From DATKZS01 sp035527835 [NCBI: bacterium] (GTDB lineage: Bacteria > RBG-13-61-14): DNA of 7,828 nt. The stretch covers positions 1 through 7,828 of the forward strand of contig DATKZS010000068.1 in the NCBI GenBank assembly GCA_035527835.1, read 5' to 3'. This document shows positions 2,926-7,324 of the stretch, piece after piece. How positions within the stretch are numbered: position 1 is the first letter of the stretch; each line of letters starts with the position of its first letter. The position numbers were made by a program, and so were the translations under genes. The notes below the pieces were generated by a model, which was not told the DNA's origin, ran no database searches, and saw only the letters and a list, made by a program, of their open reading frames with translations.

Positions 2926-2958
2926 GGGGCCGGTTTTTTAAGGGGAGACAGGTTTTTG

Positions 2959-3036
2959 TTCGCACCGAGACACAGAGAACACAGAGATTTATTATTTAAT
3001 TTTTATTCCTCTGAGTTCTCTGTGCCTCGGTGCGAA
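2959..3036. repeat. Phased inverted repeat, locus A (28-bp hairpin arms)
   Basis: The left arm at 2959-2986 and right arm at 3009-3036 are reverse complements with only 2 mismatches in 28, separated by a 22-nt loop made almost entirely of A and T. Each arm is built of three related units: CACCGAGA (2963-2970), CACAGAGAA (2971-2979) and CACAGAGA (2980-2987), that is, 8, 9 and 8 nt. The inverted arm repeats the same phasing. No gene lies inside. It follows the GlpX-like stop by 33 nt and could act as a transcription terminator or barrier, although no clean T-tract follows. Related in layout to the repeats around 6346-6822 and 7266-7324. Confidence 0.85.
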
Positions 3037-3080
3037 ATAAATTCTTTCCTCCTCATTCCCAGTATCAAGCGAGTCCAGCC

Positions 3081-4061
3081 TTGAGCGATAGCACTGACGG
3101 ATCCAGGAAGGCGCGGAAGCTCGCGGCGCGCGCGCTGATGTGGGCGGGGGCCGCGGCGGTGCTGGTGTGGATTTTTCGGCGCGTGCCGCTGGACCAGGCG
3201 CTGGAGGCGCTGAGCGGGGTCCGGCTCGGATCGTTCCTGGCGGTGGCCGCGGGTTTTTCCGCGCTCACGCTGCTGCTCGATTCCCTGACCCATTACTGGC
3301 TGTTTAACCGCTTCAACCCTCCGCTCGATTTTTGGAGCACGCTACGCTGCCGCGGAGAGACCTACCTCTTGCTGTCGCTCGGGTTCCTCTACGGTCAGGG
3401 CGGGATGGCCTACGCGGTGAGCCGGCGGGCGAAAAAGCCGCTGGCCGAGGTCACCGGCTCGATCCTGTTCATCATGCTGAACACGCTGATCAGCCTGATG
3501 GTGTTCCCGACGCTGGCGCTGATTTTTTTCATCCGGGAGACGGCGGCGCCGGAGTTCCGGTCATCGCCGGAGTGGAGCATCGTGGTGCGGTGGCTGGTGG
3601 TGTCGTGGCCGCTCATTATTCTGCATTTTGTTTTCTGGGCGCGGCGGTGGGACAACCCTCTAAGGCGGCGGCTGGTGGGAGGGCTCGCGCGGGCTTTTGA
3701 CGATGCGGGGCCCAAGGACTACGCGGTGGCGATCGGGCTCCGGTCGGTTCAGACCGTGGCGTGGTGCGCGTTCACCTGGCTCGGGCTTCGGAGCTTCTCG
3801 GCCCAGGTCCCGCTCTTTGACCTGATGGCGCTCGGGCCGCTGGTCGGGCTGATCAGCGCCATCCCCACTCCCGGCCGCATCGGGCCCGGCCAGGCCGCCT
3901 GGCTCCTGCTCTTCTCCCACCGCGCCGACCCGGCCGCGCTGGTGGCATTCTCCATCGTCTGGGTGATGGGCATCAACGTCATGCGCTGGCTGATCGGCGC
4001 CCTCTTCCTGGCCCTGCCGGGAGCGGGTCCGCTACGAAGGCCTCAGGCCCCTGAGACGTGA
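3081..4061 (+). CDS. Multi-pass membrane protein, LPG-synthase TM / flippase-like family
   Basis: From TTG 3081 the protein has 326 residues. It begins with a short hydrophilic, basic N-terminus (SRKARKLAAR) followed by about 7-9 hydrophobic segments, at roughly 17-32, 50-74, 95-112, 123-150, 166-187, 213-237, 245-262 and 285-312. The segment ISAIPTPGRIGPGQAAWL (259-274) resembles the glycine/proline-rich signature near the C-terminus of the lysylphosphatidylglycerol synthase TM region family (UPF0104, flippase-like domain), which is linked to moving lipids or lipid-linked sugars across the inner membrane. The start is uncertain: an in-frame GTG at 3030 lies inside the right arm of the upstream hairpin and looks spurious, TTG 3081 has only a weak purine-rich site (AAGCGAG), and ATG 3141 would remove most of the basic leader. 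There is no fused synthase domain, so a lipid-transfer enzyme activity is not implied. No functional link to neighbours is evident. Confidence 0.7.
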   Translation: MSDSTDGSRKARKLAARALMWAGAAAVLVWIFRRVPLDQALEALSGVRLGSFLAVAAGFSALTLLLDSLTHYWLFNRFNPPLDFWSTLRCRGETYLLLSLGFLYGQGGMAYAVSRRAKKPLAEVTGSILFIMLNTLISLMVFPTLALIFFIRETAAPEFRSSPEWSIVVRWLVVSWPLIILHFVFWARRWDNPLRRRLVGGLARAFDDAGPKDYAVAIGLRSVQTVAWCAFTWLGLRSFSAQVPLFDLMALGPLVGLISAIPTPGRIGPGQAAWLLLFSHRADPAALVAFSIVWVMGINVMRWLIGALFLALPGAGPLRRPQAPET

Positions 4062-4469: not shown

Positions 4470-4526
4470 AGTAAAGGCGTTTCGGATAGCATTTGTTATT
4501 TGGCGAGGCAGTGCCCGCGGCCTTTG

Positions 4527-4599
4527 GTGGGAGCGCCTTTGCGGGCGCGATTCTTGGAAGGGCCGGGACAATGGATCGCGCCCGGAAGGGCGCTCCCAC
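4527..4599. repeat. Inverted pair of REP-like palindromes (BIME-like)
   Basis: Arms at 4527-4551 and 4575-4599 are reverse complements with 2 mismatches in 25, separated by 23 nt. Each arm starts, from its outer end, with GTGGGAGCG and contains its own small palindrome: GCGCC/GGCGC around a short loop on the left, and GCGCCC/GGGCGC around GGAA on the right. An outer GTGG/GTAG-type tetranucleotide followed by an imperfect palindrome is typical of REP sequences mobilised by RAYT transposases, and head-to-head pairs are called BIMEs. No RAYT gene is present in this window. It lies 64 nt before the mutase start, so it could be in that mRNA's leader. Confidence 0.7.
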
Positions 4600-4662
4600 G
4601 CAAGGTAATGGACCTTTGTCAGAAGCCCTGATGTGAAAACCCGACCAAAAGGAGTGAGAGAA

Positions 4663-6327
<1,665 letters not shown>

Positions 6328-6345
6328 ATTTTAGGATTTTATTTT

Positions 6346-6379
6346 ACACAAAGGCGCAAAGTTCACAAAGGAAGAAAGA
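6346..6379 (+). repeat. Phased repeat, locus B left arm
   Basis: Three CRCAAAG units in the 8-9-8 layout: CACAAAGG (6347-6354), CGCAAAGTT (6355-6363) and CACAAAGG (6364-6371), then AAGAAAG. It begins 18 nt after the mutase stop and ends 10 nt before the ATG of the GxxExxY gene. It is the inverted partner of 6789-6822. Confidence 0.8.
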
Positions 6380-6389
6380 AGTTGCAAGA

Positions 6390-6788
6390 ATGGATGAAAA
6401 CGCATTGAGCAAGGAAATAATAGGAGCTGCCATTGACGTTCATCGCGCCTTGGGCCCCGGCCTGTTGGAATCGGTTTATGAAGAATGTTTATGCCGCGAA
6501 ATTATTCTCAGGAACATCGAATTTGAGCGGCAGGTATCCATTCCTGTCCAGTACAAAGGCGTCAAACTGGAGTGTGCTTATAAACTGGACATATTGGTTG
6601 ATGATAAAGTGGTCGTAGAAATCAAATCCGTGGAACAAGTGACTCCAGTCCATTTTAAGCAGCTTTTAACCTATCTGCGCCTCACCGATAAGAAACTGGG
6701 CTTATTGATAAACTTTAATGAAGAGGTTGTTAGAAAGGGCGTTCACAGGATAGTTAATGGTCTCTTGGCGCCTTTGACAAAGGACTGA
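6390..6788 (+). CDS. GxxExxY protein (PD-(D/E)xK nuclease-like family)
   Basis: The protein has 132 residues from ATG 6390. The signature GLLESVY (24-30, G-x-x-E-x-x-Y) follows IDVHRALGPG. A nuclease-like core is visible: D67 in KLDILVDD, then E77-I-K79, and Q91 in the helix HFKQLLTYLRL. This is the arrangement of PD-(D/E)xK nucleases, to which the GxxExxY family (Pfam PDDEXK_3) is assigned. Its cellular role is not established. The length is normal for the family, and no residue of the core looks lost. A GTG at 6324, overlapping the mutase stop as GTGA, is in frame and would add 22 residues encoded largely by the left repeat arm. I prefer ATG 6390, where family similarity begins, although only weak purine-rich sequence precedes it. 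Base composition is clearly more AT-rich than its neighbours, which suggests transfer. Confidence 0.9.
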   Translation: MDENALSKEIIGAAIDVHRALGPGLLESVYEECLCREIILRNIEFERQVSIPVQYKGVKLECAYKLDILVDDKVVVEIKSVEQVTPVHFKQLLTYLRLTDKKLGLLINFNEEVVRKGVHRIVNGLLAPLTKD

Positions 6789-6822
6789 TTTCTTTCCTTT
6801 GCGAGCTTTGCGCCTTTGCGTG
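6789..6822 (-). repeat. Phased repeat, locus B right arm
   Basis: Read on the minus strand the units are CGCAAAGG (6813-6820), CGCAAAGCT (6804-6812) and CGCAAAGG (6796-6803), followed by AAAGAAA. The 8-9-8 phasing matches the left arm at 6346-6379, with a few base differences. It starts immediately after the GxxExxY stop codon and ends 31 nt before the B12-subunit ATG. Confidence 0.8.
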
Positions 6823-6853
6823 AAAAAAACTCATCCATGGAAAGGAGTGCTAA

Positions 6854-7252
6854 ATGGAAGCAAAGATCAGGGTAGTGGTGGCGAAGCCGGGGTTGGATGG
6901 ACACGATCGCGGGGCGAAAGTGGTGGCCAGGGCCTTGCGGGACGCGGGGATGGAGGTGATTTATACGGGGCTTCGGCAGACGCCGGAGCAGATCGTGTCG
7001 GCGGTGGTGCAGGAGGACGCGGACGTGCTGGGGTTGTCAATACTCTCGGGCGCGCACGATTACCTGTTCCCGCGGATCGTGGAGCTGTTGAAGAAGGAGG
7101 GCCGGGAGGACGTGATGGTGCTGGCGGGCGGCATCTTTCCGCCGGAGGACGTGGACGGCCTGAAGAAGCTGGGCATTGCCGAGCTGTTCGGGCCTGGCGC
7201 CAACACCGACGAGGTGGTGAATTTCATCAAGGAGCATGTGAGGAAAAATTGA
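6854..7252 (+). CDS. mcmA2: Methylmalonyl-CoA mutase, small cobalamin-binding subunit
   Basis: The protein has 132 residues; AAAGGAG (6841-6847) lies 6 nt before ATG 6854. It is a complete Rossmann-like B12-binding domain of the base-off/His-on type. DGHDRG (15-20) supplies the D-x-H-x-x-G motif, in which H17 is the lower axial cobalt ligand. LSILSGAH (61-68) is the S-x-L element, and AGGIFPPED (91-99) is the GG motif near the nucleotide tail. The opening [18 protein letters not shown] matches the C-terminal domain of fused mutases almost word for word. It forms the active enzyme with the large subunit encoded at 4663-6327. It lies between two repeat loci, so co-transcription with the large subunit requires read-through across the GxxExxY cassette or a separate promoter. 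The length is typical of stand-alone B12 subunits. Symbol usage varies. Confidence 0.95.
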
Positions 7253-7265
7253 GGAGTTTATAAAC

Positions 7266-7324
7266 CGCGGAGGCGCGGAGGACGCGGAGAAAAAGTTTTT
7301 AAATTAAATCTTGGCGTCTTGGCG
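7266..7324. repeat. Phased inverted repeat, locus C (mismatched arms)
   Basis: The left arm has three units in 8-9-8 layout: CGCGGAGG (7266-7273), CGCGGAGGA (7274-7282) and CGCGGAGA (7283-7290). The right arm, read on the minus strand, has two: CGCCAAGA (7317-7324) and CGCCAAGAT (7308-7316); the third position is AT-rich sequence without a unit. Phasing agrees with loci A and B, but the arms carry different unit variants, so the hairpin is only partial (five or six pairs of seven per unit, counting G-T). An AT-rich 17-nt spacer joins them. It occupies the gap between the B12-subunit and epimerase genes. Confidence 0.7.

What the first reader, a model, noticed from the sequence alone, without database searches (positions are those of the whole stretch)
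6346..6822. GxxExxY gene in a tight inverted-repeat cassette inside the mutase operon
An AT-richer PD-(D/E)xK-like gene is enclosed with almost no spare bases by inverted phased repeats, between genes for two subunits of one enzyme. The gene-less locus A and locus C could be empty forms or targets of the same system. If the nuclease-like protein recognises the phased repeats, gene and arms may form a minimal selfish element that uses no transposase, such as a homing-type endonuclease copied by repair.
Basis: partly seen in the sequence, partly recalled or inferred. Interest (0 to 1): 0.75.

Follow-up and report, generated by a model that had tools for sequence, protein, structure and literature searches.

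The report
Nuclease gene inside mobile phased palindrome
A small nuclease gene sits in the loop of a palindrome built from short phased repeats, and similar gene-plus-palindrome units recur in many bacteria, are swapped at fixed sites between related species and have gene-less copies, so it looks like an undescribed kind of minimal mobile DNA.

Summary
Observation confirmed. A GxxExxY (PDDEXK_3) gene at 6390-6788 is tightly enclosed by a 39-bp inverted repeat of phased CRCAAAG units between two methylmalonyl-CoA mutase genes. It is not a local curiosity. Matching inverted arms flank GxxExxY genes in 57 of 72 loci from many phyla (10 of 360 control places) and 81 of 83 Hymenobacter loci. The two arms of a cassette change together, and arm class follows protein lineage. 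In Hymenobacter 14 sites are shared between species; at the two largest, cassettes turn over independently of flanks: one pair has 95%-identical flanks but 67%-identical proteins and different arms. Empty sites, gene-less palindromes and remnants occur there too. One planctomycete has 122+122 arms but one matching gene. The protein keeps its catalytic residues. Best reading: a minimal mobile cassette laid out like RAYT/REPIN with an unrelated nuclease; that the nuclease acts on the arms is inferred. Homing is partly supported: same-site turnover is real, clear flank co-conversion is not seen, and gene-less copies exist. At genome level arms go equally with Y1_Tnp and four-helix-bundle genes; the latter share the layout with ~7-nt units.

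The parts
6390..6788 (+). GxxExxY gene, 132 aa, PD-(D/E)XK nuclease, Cas4/lambda-exonuclease-like by fold comparison
   Evidence: PF13366 1.2e-43, TIGR04256 2.9e-45; D67, E77, K79, Q91, Y95 invariant in 52 of 52 aligned sequences; AlphaFold pLDDT 92.7; VIA Z 9.4 to SSO0001 (that SSO0001 is a Cas4 is recalled)
6335..6373 (+). Left arm; three phased units at 6347-6370 (CACAAAG, CGCAAAG, CACAAAG; steps 8 and 9)
   Evidence: IR I2, 39 nt, 85%; pattern 21 of 21
6794..6832 (-). Right arm, inverted copy; units at 6797-6820
   Evidence: IR I2; pattern 21 of 21
4663..6327 (+). Upstream neighbour: methylmalonyl-CoA mutase large subunit
   Evidence: PF01642 4.2e-238, TIGR00641 1.1e-250
6854..7252 (+). 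Downstream neighbour: methylmalonyl-CoA mutase small, B12-binding subunit
   Evidence: TIGR00640 3.3e-53
2947..3048 (.). Locus A: gene-less palindrome, CACAGAG-like units, 22-nt loop
   Evidence: IR I1, 40 nt, 83%; arms scored 20 and 19 of 21
7266..7324 (.). Locus C: gene-less, asymmetric; CGCGGAG arm 7266-7289 (+), CGCCAAG half 7310-7324 (-)
   Evidence: + arm 21 of 21; - half read by eye

Best explanation
The feature is one copy of a widespread minimal mobile cassette: arm, promoterless GxxExxY open reading frame, inverted arm. SHOWN by sequence comparison: arms and gene recur together; the arms match each other and change together; arm class follows protein lineage; at some fixed sites the cassette is absent, decayed or replaced by another as a unit; gene-less palindromes with the same arms exist in numbers. 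INFERRED: the GxxExxY nuclease recognises its own phased palindrome, probably extruded as a hairpin or cruciform, and cuts or processes it. Repair or strand transfer then copies the palindrome, with or without the gene, to another place or re-installs it at a preferred intergenic site. Gene-less palindromes would be non-autonomous copies served in trans, as REPINs are by RAYT. In the window such a cassette has entered the mutase cluster behind the large-subunit gene and is presumably read by read-through.
For: (1) Arms are a property of the gene: IR score >=12 in 57 of 72 loci against 10 of 360 random places in the same contigs, >=14 in 48 of 72 against 2 of 360; 81 of 83 Hymenobacter loci >=12, 75 of 83 >=20. 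(2) Arm class (..AG units or ..GAT units) needs 3 changes on a tree of 197 proteins with 137 rows labelled (shuffled mean 39, minimum 29); without two stray labels (L068, L280; removed after seeing the result) it needs 1. Both classes occur in Hymenobacter (31 and 38) and outside it (60 and 8). (3) Both arms change alike between same-site cassettes: 784 matched double changes against about 65 expected if arms were independent (pairs overlap, arms were chosen for symmetry). (4) Same-site turnover: L113/L146 flanks 95% and 95% nt, gene 67% aa, while L113's gene is 94% like L111's and L146's 95% like L140's. Site S1 (19 loci): flank against flank r=0.55 p=0.001, gene against flanks r=0.05 and 0.01, n.s.. 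(5) Site S2, 30 loci returned for 61 genomes, 26 with both flanks readable: 8 cassettes, 3 gene-less palindromes, 7 tight empty sites, 8 other (classes after the first by eye). (6) G127: 122+122 exact arms, mostly in inward pairs, two GxxExxY matches, one of them (L267) between the same arms, 35 bp perfect. (7) Y1_Tnp genes in 22 arm-bearing genomes carry palindromes of another kind (by eye); only 6 of 30 such loci hold any arm-like hit. (8) Catalytic residues are invariant, so activity is probably selected.
Against: No assay: nothing shows that the protein touches the arms. No target-site duplication was seen (by eye). In 149 Planctomycetota genomes exact arms go with GxxExxY (36 of 70 with the gene, 11 of 79 without), but as much with Y1_Tnp (42 of 94, 5 of 55) and with four-helix-bundle genes (37 of 75, 10 of 74); among genomes without Y1_Tnp the GxxExxY link vanishes (1 of 11 against 4 of 44). 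34 of the 70 gene-bearing genomes lack exact arms of this one pattern. Some genomes have many arms and no detected gene (G134 105, G122 27, G174 15). Shared Hymenobacter sites mostly have their own gene clade (16 changes for 14 labels), and the 5-locus sites S5 (upstream flank r=0.93, p=0.006) and S4 (downstream flank r=0.93, p=0.011) look vertical, so free transposition is not common there. 15 of 72 loci show no clear arms. The host label (Hymenobacter or not) is as clustered on the tree as the arm class (3 changes).
Confidence: 0.5

Rival explanations
1. Homing-endonuclease-like gene: the nuclease cuts cassette-free or differently armed alleles of one site and is copied in by recombinational repair. 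The arms are recognition half-sites or protection.
For: Site-specific protein clades, patchy presence, broken copies and replacement at the same site in related species are what a homing cycle predicts. In L114/L127 upstream identity falls from 92-93% to 83-84% within 200 nt of the cassette, which could be a short co-conversion tract.
Against: Other swapped pairs show no such fall (L111/L133, 50-100 nt out: 90% and 98%; the innermost 50 columns, partly inside the arms, 78% and 86%); L113/L146 stay near-identical up to the upstream stop codon. Tight empty sites contain no arm sequence (by eye). About a hundred gene-less palindromes in G127 are not explained.
Confidence: 0.2
2. The GxxExxY gene is a passenger or host-useful cargo. 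The palindromes are made and moved by something else (a Y1/HUH transposase, or replication template switching), which also carries four-helix-bundle genes.
For: Arms are commonest in genomes with both GxxExxY and Y1_Tnp (35 of 59; 1 of 11 with GxxExxY only, 7 of 35 with Y1_Tnp only, 4 of 44 with neither). Unrelated TIGR02436 genes sit in similar phased palindromes (IR>=14 in 24 of 30).
Against: Y1_Tnp loci have palindromes of a different kind, and only 6 of 30 hold any arm-like hit. Arm class tracks GxxExxY lineage. The TIGR02436 arms mostly have other units.
Confidence: 0.2
3. Ordinary operon gene whose flanking stems act in RNA (RNase III processing, mRNA stability), inherited vertically.
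For: Sense orientation behind a co-directional gene (84 of 98 upstream, 73 of 98 downstream); S5 largely vertical.
Against: Arm mismatches show no G-U excess on the sense strand (62 GU against 95 AC in Hymenobacter; 56 against 58 elsewhere). Cassette swaps and empty sites contradict simple vertical descent at S1 and S2.
Confidence: 0.07

Closest known systems
RAYT (TnpA_REP) / REP / REPIN systems
   Same: A single gene lies among inverted palindromic repeats; many gene-less inverted pairs occur in the genome; gene and repeat co-diversify (abstracts and outlines of PMC3116915 and PMC8266576 seen).
   Different: Enzyme is PD-(D/E)XK, not HUH/Y1. Arms are runs of about 9-nt phased units (autocorrelation peak at lag 9) and the gene sits inside the palindrome. 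Y1_Tnp genes in the same genomes have their own, different palindromes.
Homing endonuclease genes (PD-(D/E)XK ones such as I-Ssp6803I, recalled)
   Same: Small nuclease gene, fixed sites, patchy presence, decay and replacement at the same site.
   Different: Carries its own inverted arms, has gene-less relatives, shows no consistent flank co-conversion, and in the loci looked at lies between genes rather than in an intron or intein.
TIR transposons and MITEs
   Same: Inverted ends; gene-less forms with the same ends.
   Different: No DDE transposase, no target duplication seen; the ends are phased repeats that change in concert.
Cas4 / lambda exonuclease / RecB-type nucleases
   Same: Fold and Q...Y pair (the motif's assignment is recalled); PADLOC Cas4 at E=0.0012.
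   Different: Only about 125-132 aa; the window protein has 3 cysteines, too few for the four that Cas4 uses for its Fe-S cluster (recalled). CRISPR context was not looked for.
23S rRNA intervening-sequence / S23 four-helix-bundle elements
   Same: Small ORF in the loop of a stem; TIGR02436 loci show phased inverted arms.
   Different: Unrelated protein; mostly ~7-nt units; the rRNA location and the link to DGR Avd are recalled, not tested.

Membership tests
GxxExxY / PDDEXK_3 (TIGR04256, PF13366) | Match above the curated cut-off over the whole domain | tested here: met
   148.6 bits against 22 and 153.4 against 35
GxxExxY / PDDEXK_3 (TIGR04256, PF13366) | Catalytic D...ExK residues kept | tested here: met
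   D67, E77, K79 invariant in 52 of 52 aligned (51 of 80 loci plus the window; rows with stops and some near-duplicates left out)
RAYT/REPIN | HUH/Y1 transposase as the enzyme | tested here: not met
   The only Pfam family of the protein is PDDEXK_3
RAYT/REPIN | GTAG-tagged REP palindromes | tested here: not met
   Arms are CRCRRAG- or CGGATT-type phased units; palindromes near Y1_Tnp genes look different by eye
RAYT/REPIN | Dispersed gene-less inverted pairs sharing the sequence that flanks the gene | tested here: met
   One genome examined in detail, G127
Homing endonuclease gene | Cassette-free alleles at the same site in relatives | tested here: met
   7 of 26 readable S2 loci tightly empty; 0 of 30 distant mutase loci carry the gene
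Homing endonuclease gene | Cleavage of the cassette-free site and conversion | not testable with these tools
   Needs protein
Homing endonuclease gene | Co-conversion of flanks | tested here: inconclusive
   No consistent fall in flank identity towards the cassette; one of the swapped pairs falls on one side
TIR transposon/MITE | DDE-type transposase | tested here: not met
   The one gene of the cassette is PDDEXK_3 only
TIR transposon/MITE | Target-site duplication | tested here: inconclusive
   None seen by eye; no systematic empty/filled junction set
Cas4/lambda-exonuclease-like nucleases | Fold | tested here: inconclusive
   Best match SSO0001, Z 9.4; the following rows (Z about 6-8) include restriction enzymes and Hjc as well as Cas4 and LHK-Exo; Foldseek E 0.002 at best

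The most novel reading that the evidence does not exclude
A categorically new class of bacterial mobile DNA: 'phased-palindrome cassettes', in which a tiny ORF lives in the loop of a palindrome whose arms are runs of 7- or about 9-nt units read by the ORF's own product. GxxExxY nucleases are one branch and four-helix-bundle (S23/Avd-like) proteins another. The arms act as a rapidly evolving specificity code, kept symmetrical by conversion between the arms, and cassettes of different code displace each other at fixed genomic sites.
Probability: 0.3. Interest if true: 0.93.

Novelty: new variant of a known kind. Interest (0 to 1): 0.8.

Why it matters
GxxExxY genes are common: a match in 70 of 149 Planctomycetota and 41 of 61 Hymenobacter genomes sampled. 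I found no paper on their function. The survey gives the family a context, a candidate cognate DNA and a testable role, and may explain the CACAGAG-type palindromes scattered through such genomes. If the nuclease reads the units, many natural protein/arm pairs form a ready-made specificity data set. If such palindromes travel with two unrelated proteins, short phased palindromes may be a general vehicle of bacterial gene mobility.

Tried and rejected
Whole genome of the window: none held, so copy number and empty sites in its own species could not be examined. Rfam: no match at gathering scores. PDB sequence relatives: none at E<=1. Phages: no match in 50,697 records; plasmids: 7 of 72,556 records, all under 60% identity, so phage or plasmid cargo was not pursued. 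RNA-level hypothesis: tested by GU/AC mismatch counts and not supported. First guess that the swaps moved cassettes between sites: rejected, because shared sites mostly have their own protein clade. Idea that the arms are RAYT REPs: rejected on local evidence, although genome-level association cannot separate them. The site label on the first, smaller tree was superseded.

Literature. GxxExxY: 2 papers, PMC12085832 seen as listing only, PMC8934634 as one passage, where a gene that CRISPRone took for cas4 was reported as GxxExxY. PDDEXK_3: none. PF13366/TIGR04256 and related terms: 2 papers, PMC12085832 and PMC9756366, listing only. Twelve 15-mers of ..AG-type arms: none..GAT-type arms were not searched. 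PDDEXK with inverted repeats and homing: 1 paper, on mitochondrial plasmids by its listing. A six-term search on palindromic repeats and nuclease: 2 papers, off topic by their listing. REPIN with RAYT: 18 papers, 15 listed, of which I saw two abstracts and outlines. Four-helix-bundle with 23S intervening sequence: 1 paper, listing only. 'Not described' rests on these searches of open-licence PMC papers alone.

Limits. GxxExxY ends in loci come from tblastn matches. Orientation takes the longest nearby ORF; of 116 non-redundant loci 14 had too little flank, 4 gave no clear neighbour and 98 were counted, same-site orthologues separately. The 83 Hymenobacter loci are 83 of 95 matches; 11 short fragments and one copy with a stop (G075:C2:4768112) were not fetched. 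Arm classes are by regular expression; rows without a class are not counted. One search used only same-site pairs with IR>=15, at least 22 aligned columns and at least 70% arm identity, and arms chosen for symmetry, which inflates double changes. For TIGR02436 and Y1_Tnp loci the gene position was taken from the match coordinates. S1 and S2 site surveys saw the 30 best of the loci in 61 genomes.

Full report
WHAT IS THERE. The window is a GC-rich stretch with genes for a glucosaminidase-like protein, an FBPase-glpX-like protein, an ORF (3030-4061) without a family match, and a methylmalonyl-CoA mutase cluster (large subunit, small subunit, epimerase). Between the two mutase subunits lies a 132-aa GxxExxY gene, PF13366/TIGR04256, in a GC trough. 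It is enclosed by a 39-bp inverted repeat at 85% made of three CRCAAAG units at 8- and 9-nt steps on each side.

IS IT MORE THAN CHANCE? The family-wide answer is clear. Eighty GxxExxY loci, the best 80 of 113 found, were fetched from species genomes of many phyla. A three-unit CRCRRAG pattern (at least 17 of 21 positions) finds an upstream + arm within 350 nt in 42 and a downstream - arm in 52 of 81 loci (with the window), both in 38; shuffling the same 571 kb gives 24 hits in all. A motif-free inverted-repeat score, on the 72 of 81 loci with enough flank, is >=12 in 57 of 72 against 10 of 360 random places in the same contigs, and >=14 in 48 of 72 against 2 of 360. In Hymenobacter, whose arms use other units, 81 of 83 loci reach 12 and 75 reach 20, up to a perfect 81-bp arm pair. 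Over 138 arms the autocorrelation peaks at lag 9 (0.38), with shoulders at 10 and 8 and a second rise near 18.

ANATOMY. The cassette is arm, ORF, inverted arm, with little else; in the flanks printed, the ORF often starts and stops within tens of bases of an arm. It follows a co-directional gene in 84 of 98 loci and precedes one in 73 of 98; both in 64 of 98 (same-site orthologues included). There is little room for a promoter, so expression by read-through is inferred.

THE ARMS. Units differ between cassettes (CAGAG, CAAAG, CGGAG, CAGTG, CAGGG, CGGAT and others), but the two arms of one cassette agree. Between cassettes at one site both arms tend to carry the same changes: 784 matched double changes and 721 single ones over 6,718 compared columns, against about 65 matched expected for independent arms (pairs overlap and arms were chosen for symmetry). 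Clear small cases are L297 against L314 (2 matched, 0 single) and L320 against L321 (7 matched, 0 single). Mismatches show no sense-strand G-U preference: 62 GU against 95 AC in Hymenobacter, 56 against 58 elsewhere. So symmetry seems to be kept at DNA level, by conversion or by recognition, rather than for mRNA pairing. On a 197-protein tree the arm class (..AG or ..GAT units) needs 3 changes for 137 rows, shuffled mean 39; without two stray labels, dropped after the fact, it needs 1. Hymenobacter holds both classes (31 and 38) and so do the other loci (60 and 8). The host label alone (Hymenobacter or not) also needs only 3 changes, and the tree rests on 125 columns with many unresolved forks. 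Still, one class boundary runs through both host groups along the protein tree, at protein distances where unselected non-coding arms should have lost all likeness.

MOBILITY. Presence is patchy: 41 of 61 Hymenobacter genomes, 70 of 149 Planctomycetota. Matches per genome run from 1 to 19 in the 25 genomes, with broken copies among them. In Hymenobacter 83 of 95 matches were read; they fall into 34 sites, 14 of them shared (63 loci). Shared sites mostly have their own protein clade: 16 changes for 14 labels, shuffled mean 42. Within a site the cassette is uncoupled from its flanks at S1 (19 loci: flank-flank r=0.55, p=0.001; gene-flank r=0.05 and 0.01, not significant) and at S2 (8 loci: 0.73, p=0.001; 0.24, p=0.077 and 0.11, p=0.26). 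S3 (5 loci) points the same way without significance (0.86, p=0.086; 0.07 and -0.14). Against this, S5 (5 loci) is vertical on the upstream flank (r=0.93, p=0.006) and S4 (5 loci) on the downstream flank (r=0.93, p=0.011). The clearest case is L113/L146: flanks 95% and 95%, protein 67%, different arms, with homology ending at the stop codon of the upstream gene; downstream it resumes after about the first 15 codons of the next gene. Flank identity in other swapped pairs shows no consistent fall near the cassette: none in L111/L133 beyond the innermost 50 columns; in L114/L127 upstream it falls from 92-93% to 83-84%, downstream it does not. At S2, 30 loci were returned for 61 genomes and 26 had both flanks readable: 8 cassettes, 3 gene-less palindromes, 7 tight empty sites, 8 with other sequence. 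At S1, 8 of 30 returned loci carry the gene, and two relatives with 95-96% identical flank proteins keep only arm remnants by eye. For the window itself only distant relatives were reachable: among the 30 best mutase small-subunit loci in 247 genomes of the phylum of G005 (a Syntrophobacteraceae genome) none has the gene, and in 28 the two subunit genes were found 13-351 nt apart.

GENE-LESS PALINDROMES. Exact CRCRRAG arms occur in 47 of 149 Planctomycetota genomes; the reversed control pattern occurs in none. G127 has 122 forward and 122 reverse arms, mostly listed as inward pairs at about 80-260 nt. Of 22 distinct elements compared (one gene-bearing, some nested), 12 have related interiors and 10 do not. 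One of its two GxxExxY genes sits between the same arms, 35 bp perfect. This is the layout of a REPIN family with one gene-bearing copy. At genome level, however, arms go not only with GxxExxY (36 of 70 with the gene, 11 of 79 without) but as much with Y1_Tnp (42 of 94, 5 of 55) and TIGR02436 (37 of 75, 10 of 74), and without Y1_Tnp the GxxExxY link is gone (1 of 11 against 4 of 44). So this association does not single out GxxExxY. Locally the systems separate: Y1_Tnp loci have other palindromes (IR>=14 in 22 of 30), with an arm-like hit anywhere in only 6 of 30 loci.

THE PROTEIN. D67, E77, K79 and Q91...Y95 are invariant in 52 of 52 aligned sequences; that Q...Y is the RecB/Cas4-type motif is recalled. 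AlphaFold gives pLDDT 92.7. The best fold match is SSO0001 (Z 9.4; recalled to be Cas4). Rows at Z 6-8, a level the tool calls common, include LHK-Exo, a Cas4 (Pcal_0546), Hjc resolvase and restriction enzymes; Foldseek E-values are weak (0.002 at best). Enzymes of this fold act on DNA ends, flaps and junctions (general knowledge), which suits a substrate extruded from a palindrome.

BEST READING AND ITS LIMITS. A minimal mobile cassette whose nuclease serves its own palindrome, organised like RAYT/REPIN but with an unrelated enzyme. Shown: the linkage, the symmetry and joint change of the arms, the coupling of arm class to protein lineage, cassette turnover at some fixed sites, and the gene-less copies. 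Inferred: that the nuclease acts on the arms, and how the copy is made. Homing explains the site-bound clades and the turnover but not the arms or the gene-less copies. A passenger model is kept alive by the co-occurrence with Y1_Tnp and by the four-helix-bundle parallel.

NOVELTY. No paper found in my searches describes it. It fails a defining feature of RAYT/REPIN and of TIR transposons, and only part of the homing definition could be tested. I therefore call it a new variant of a known kind (palindrome-plus-enzyme mobile DNA) and keep 'new class' as the bold case.

Noticed in passing
L383-L412 (Planctomycetota, TIGR02436 four-helix-bundle genes): These unrelated genes also sit inside phased inverted repeats, mostly with ~7-nt units (AGTGGTT, TAGGGGT, GGTGTCT): IR>=14 in 24 of 30 loci (some arms are low-complexity); family present in 75 of 149 genomes. 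L407 has CACGGAG arms like GxxExxY.
   Followed up: partly
window 4521-4551 / 4575-4605: A third long hairpin (31 nt, 87%) of another type, GGGAGCGCC...GGCGCTCCC, between the ORF at 3030-4061 and the mutase genes.
   Followed up: no
L030, L047, L049; L045: GxxExxY genes among tandem arm repeats: both-strand or one-strand arms every ~100-126 nt in L030, L047 and L049; a one-strand array with many ~27-nt steps in L045.
   Followed up: no
G134, G122, G174, G156 (Planctomycetota): Many exact arms (105, 27, 15, 7) but no GxxExxY gene detected: gene loss, incomplete genomes, or another mover.
   Followed up: no
L257-L266, L323-L351 (G127): Many gene-less palindromes there also carry an outer mini-hairpin like TCGCCTTCGGCGA on each side, which the gene-bearing copy L267 lacks (by eye).
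   Followed up: no
L116 (G081): Its flanks match those of site S1 in the opposite orientation, so relative to those neighbours the cassette is inverted; counted here as a separate site.
   Followed up: no
S1 site loci, e.g. L121, L187, L189: Between the two amylase-like genes several species carry another gene whose start reads like a short-chain dehydrogenase, with or without the cassette (by eye).
   Followed up: no
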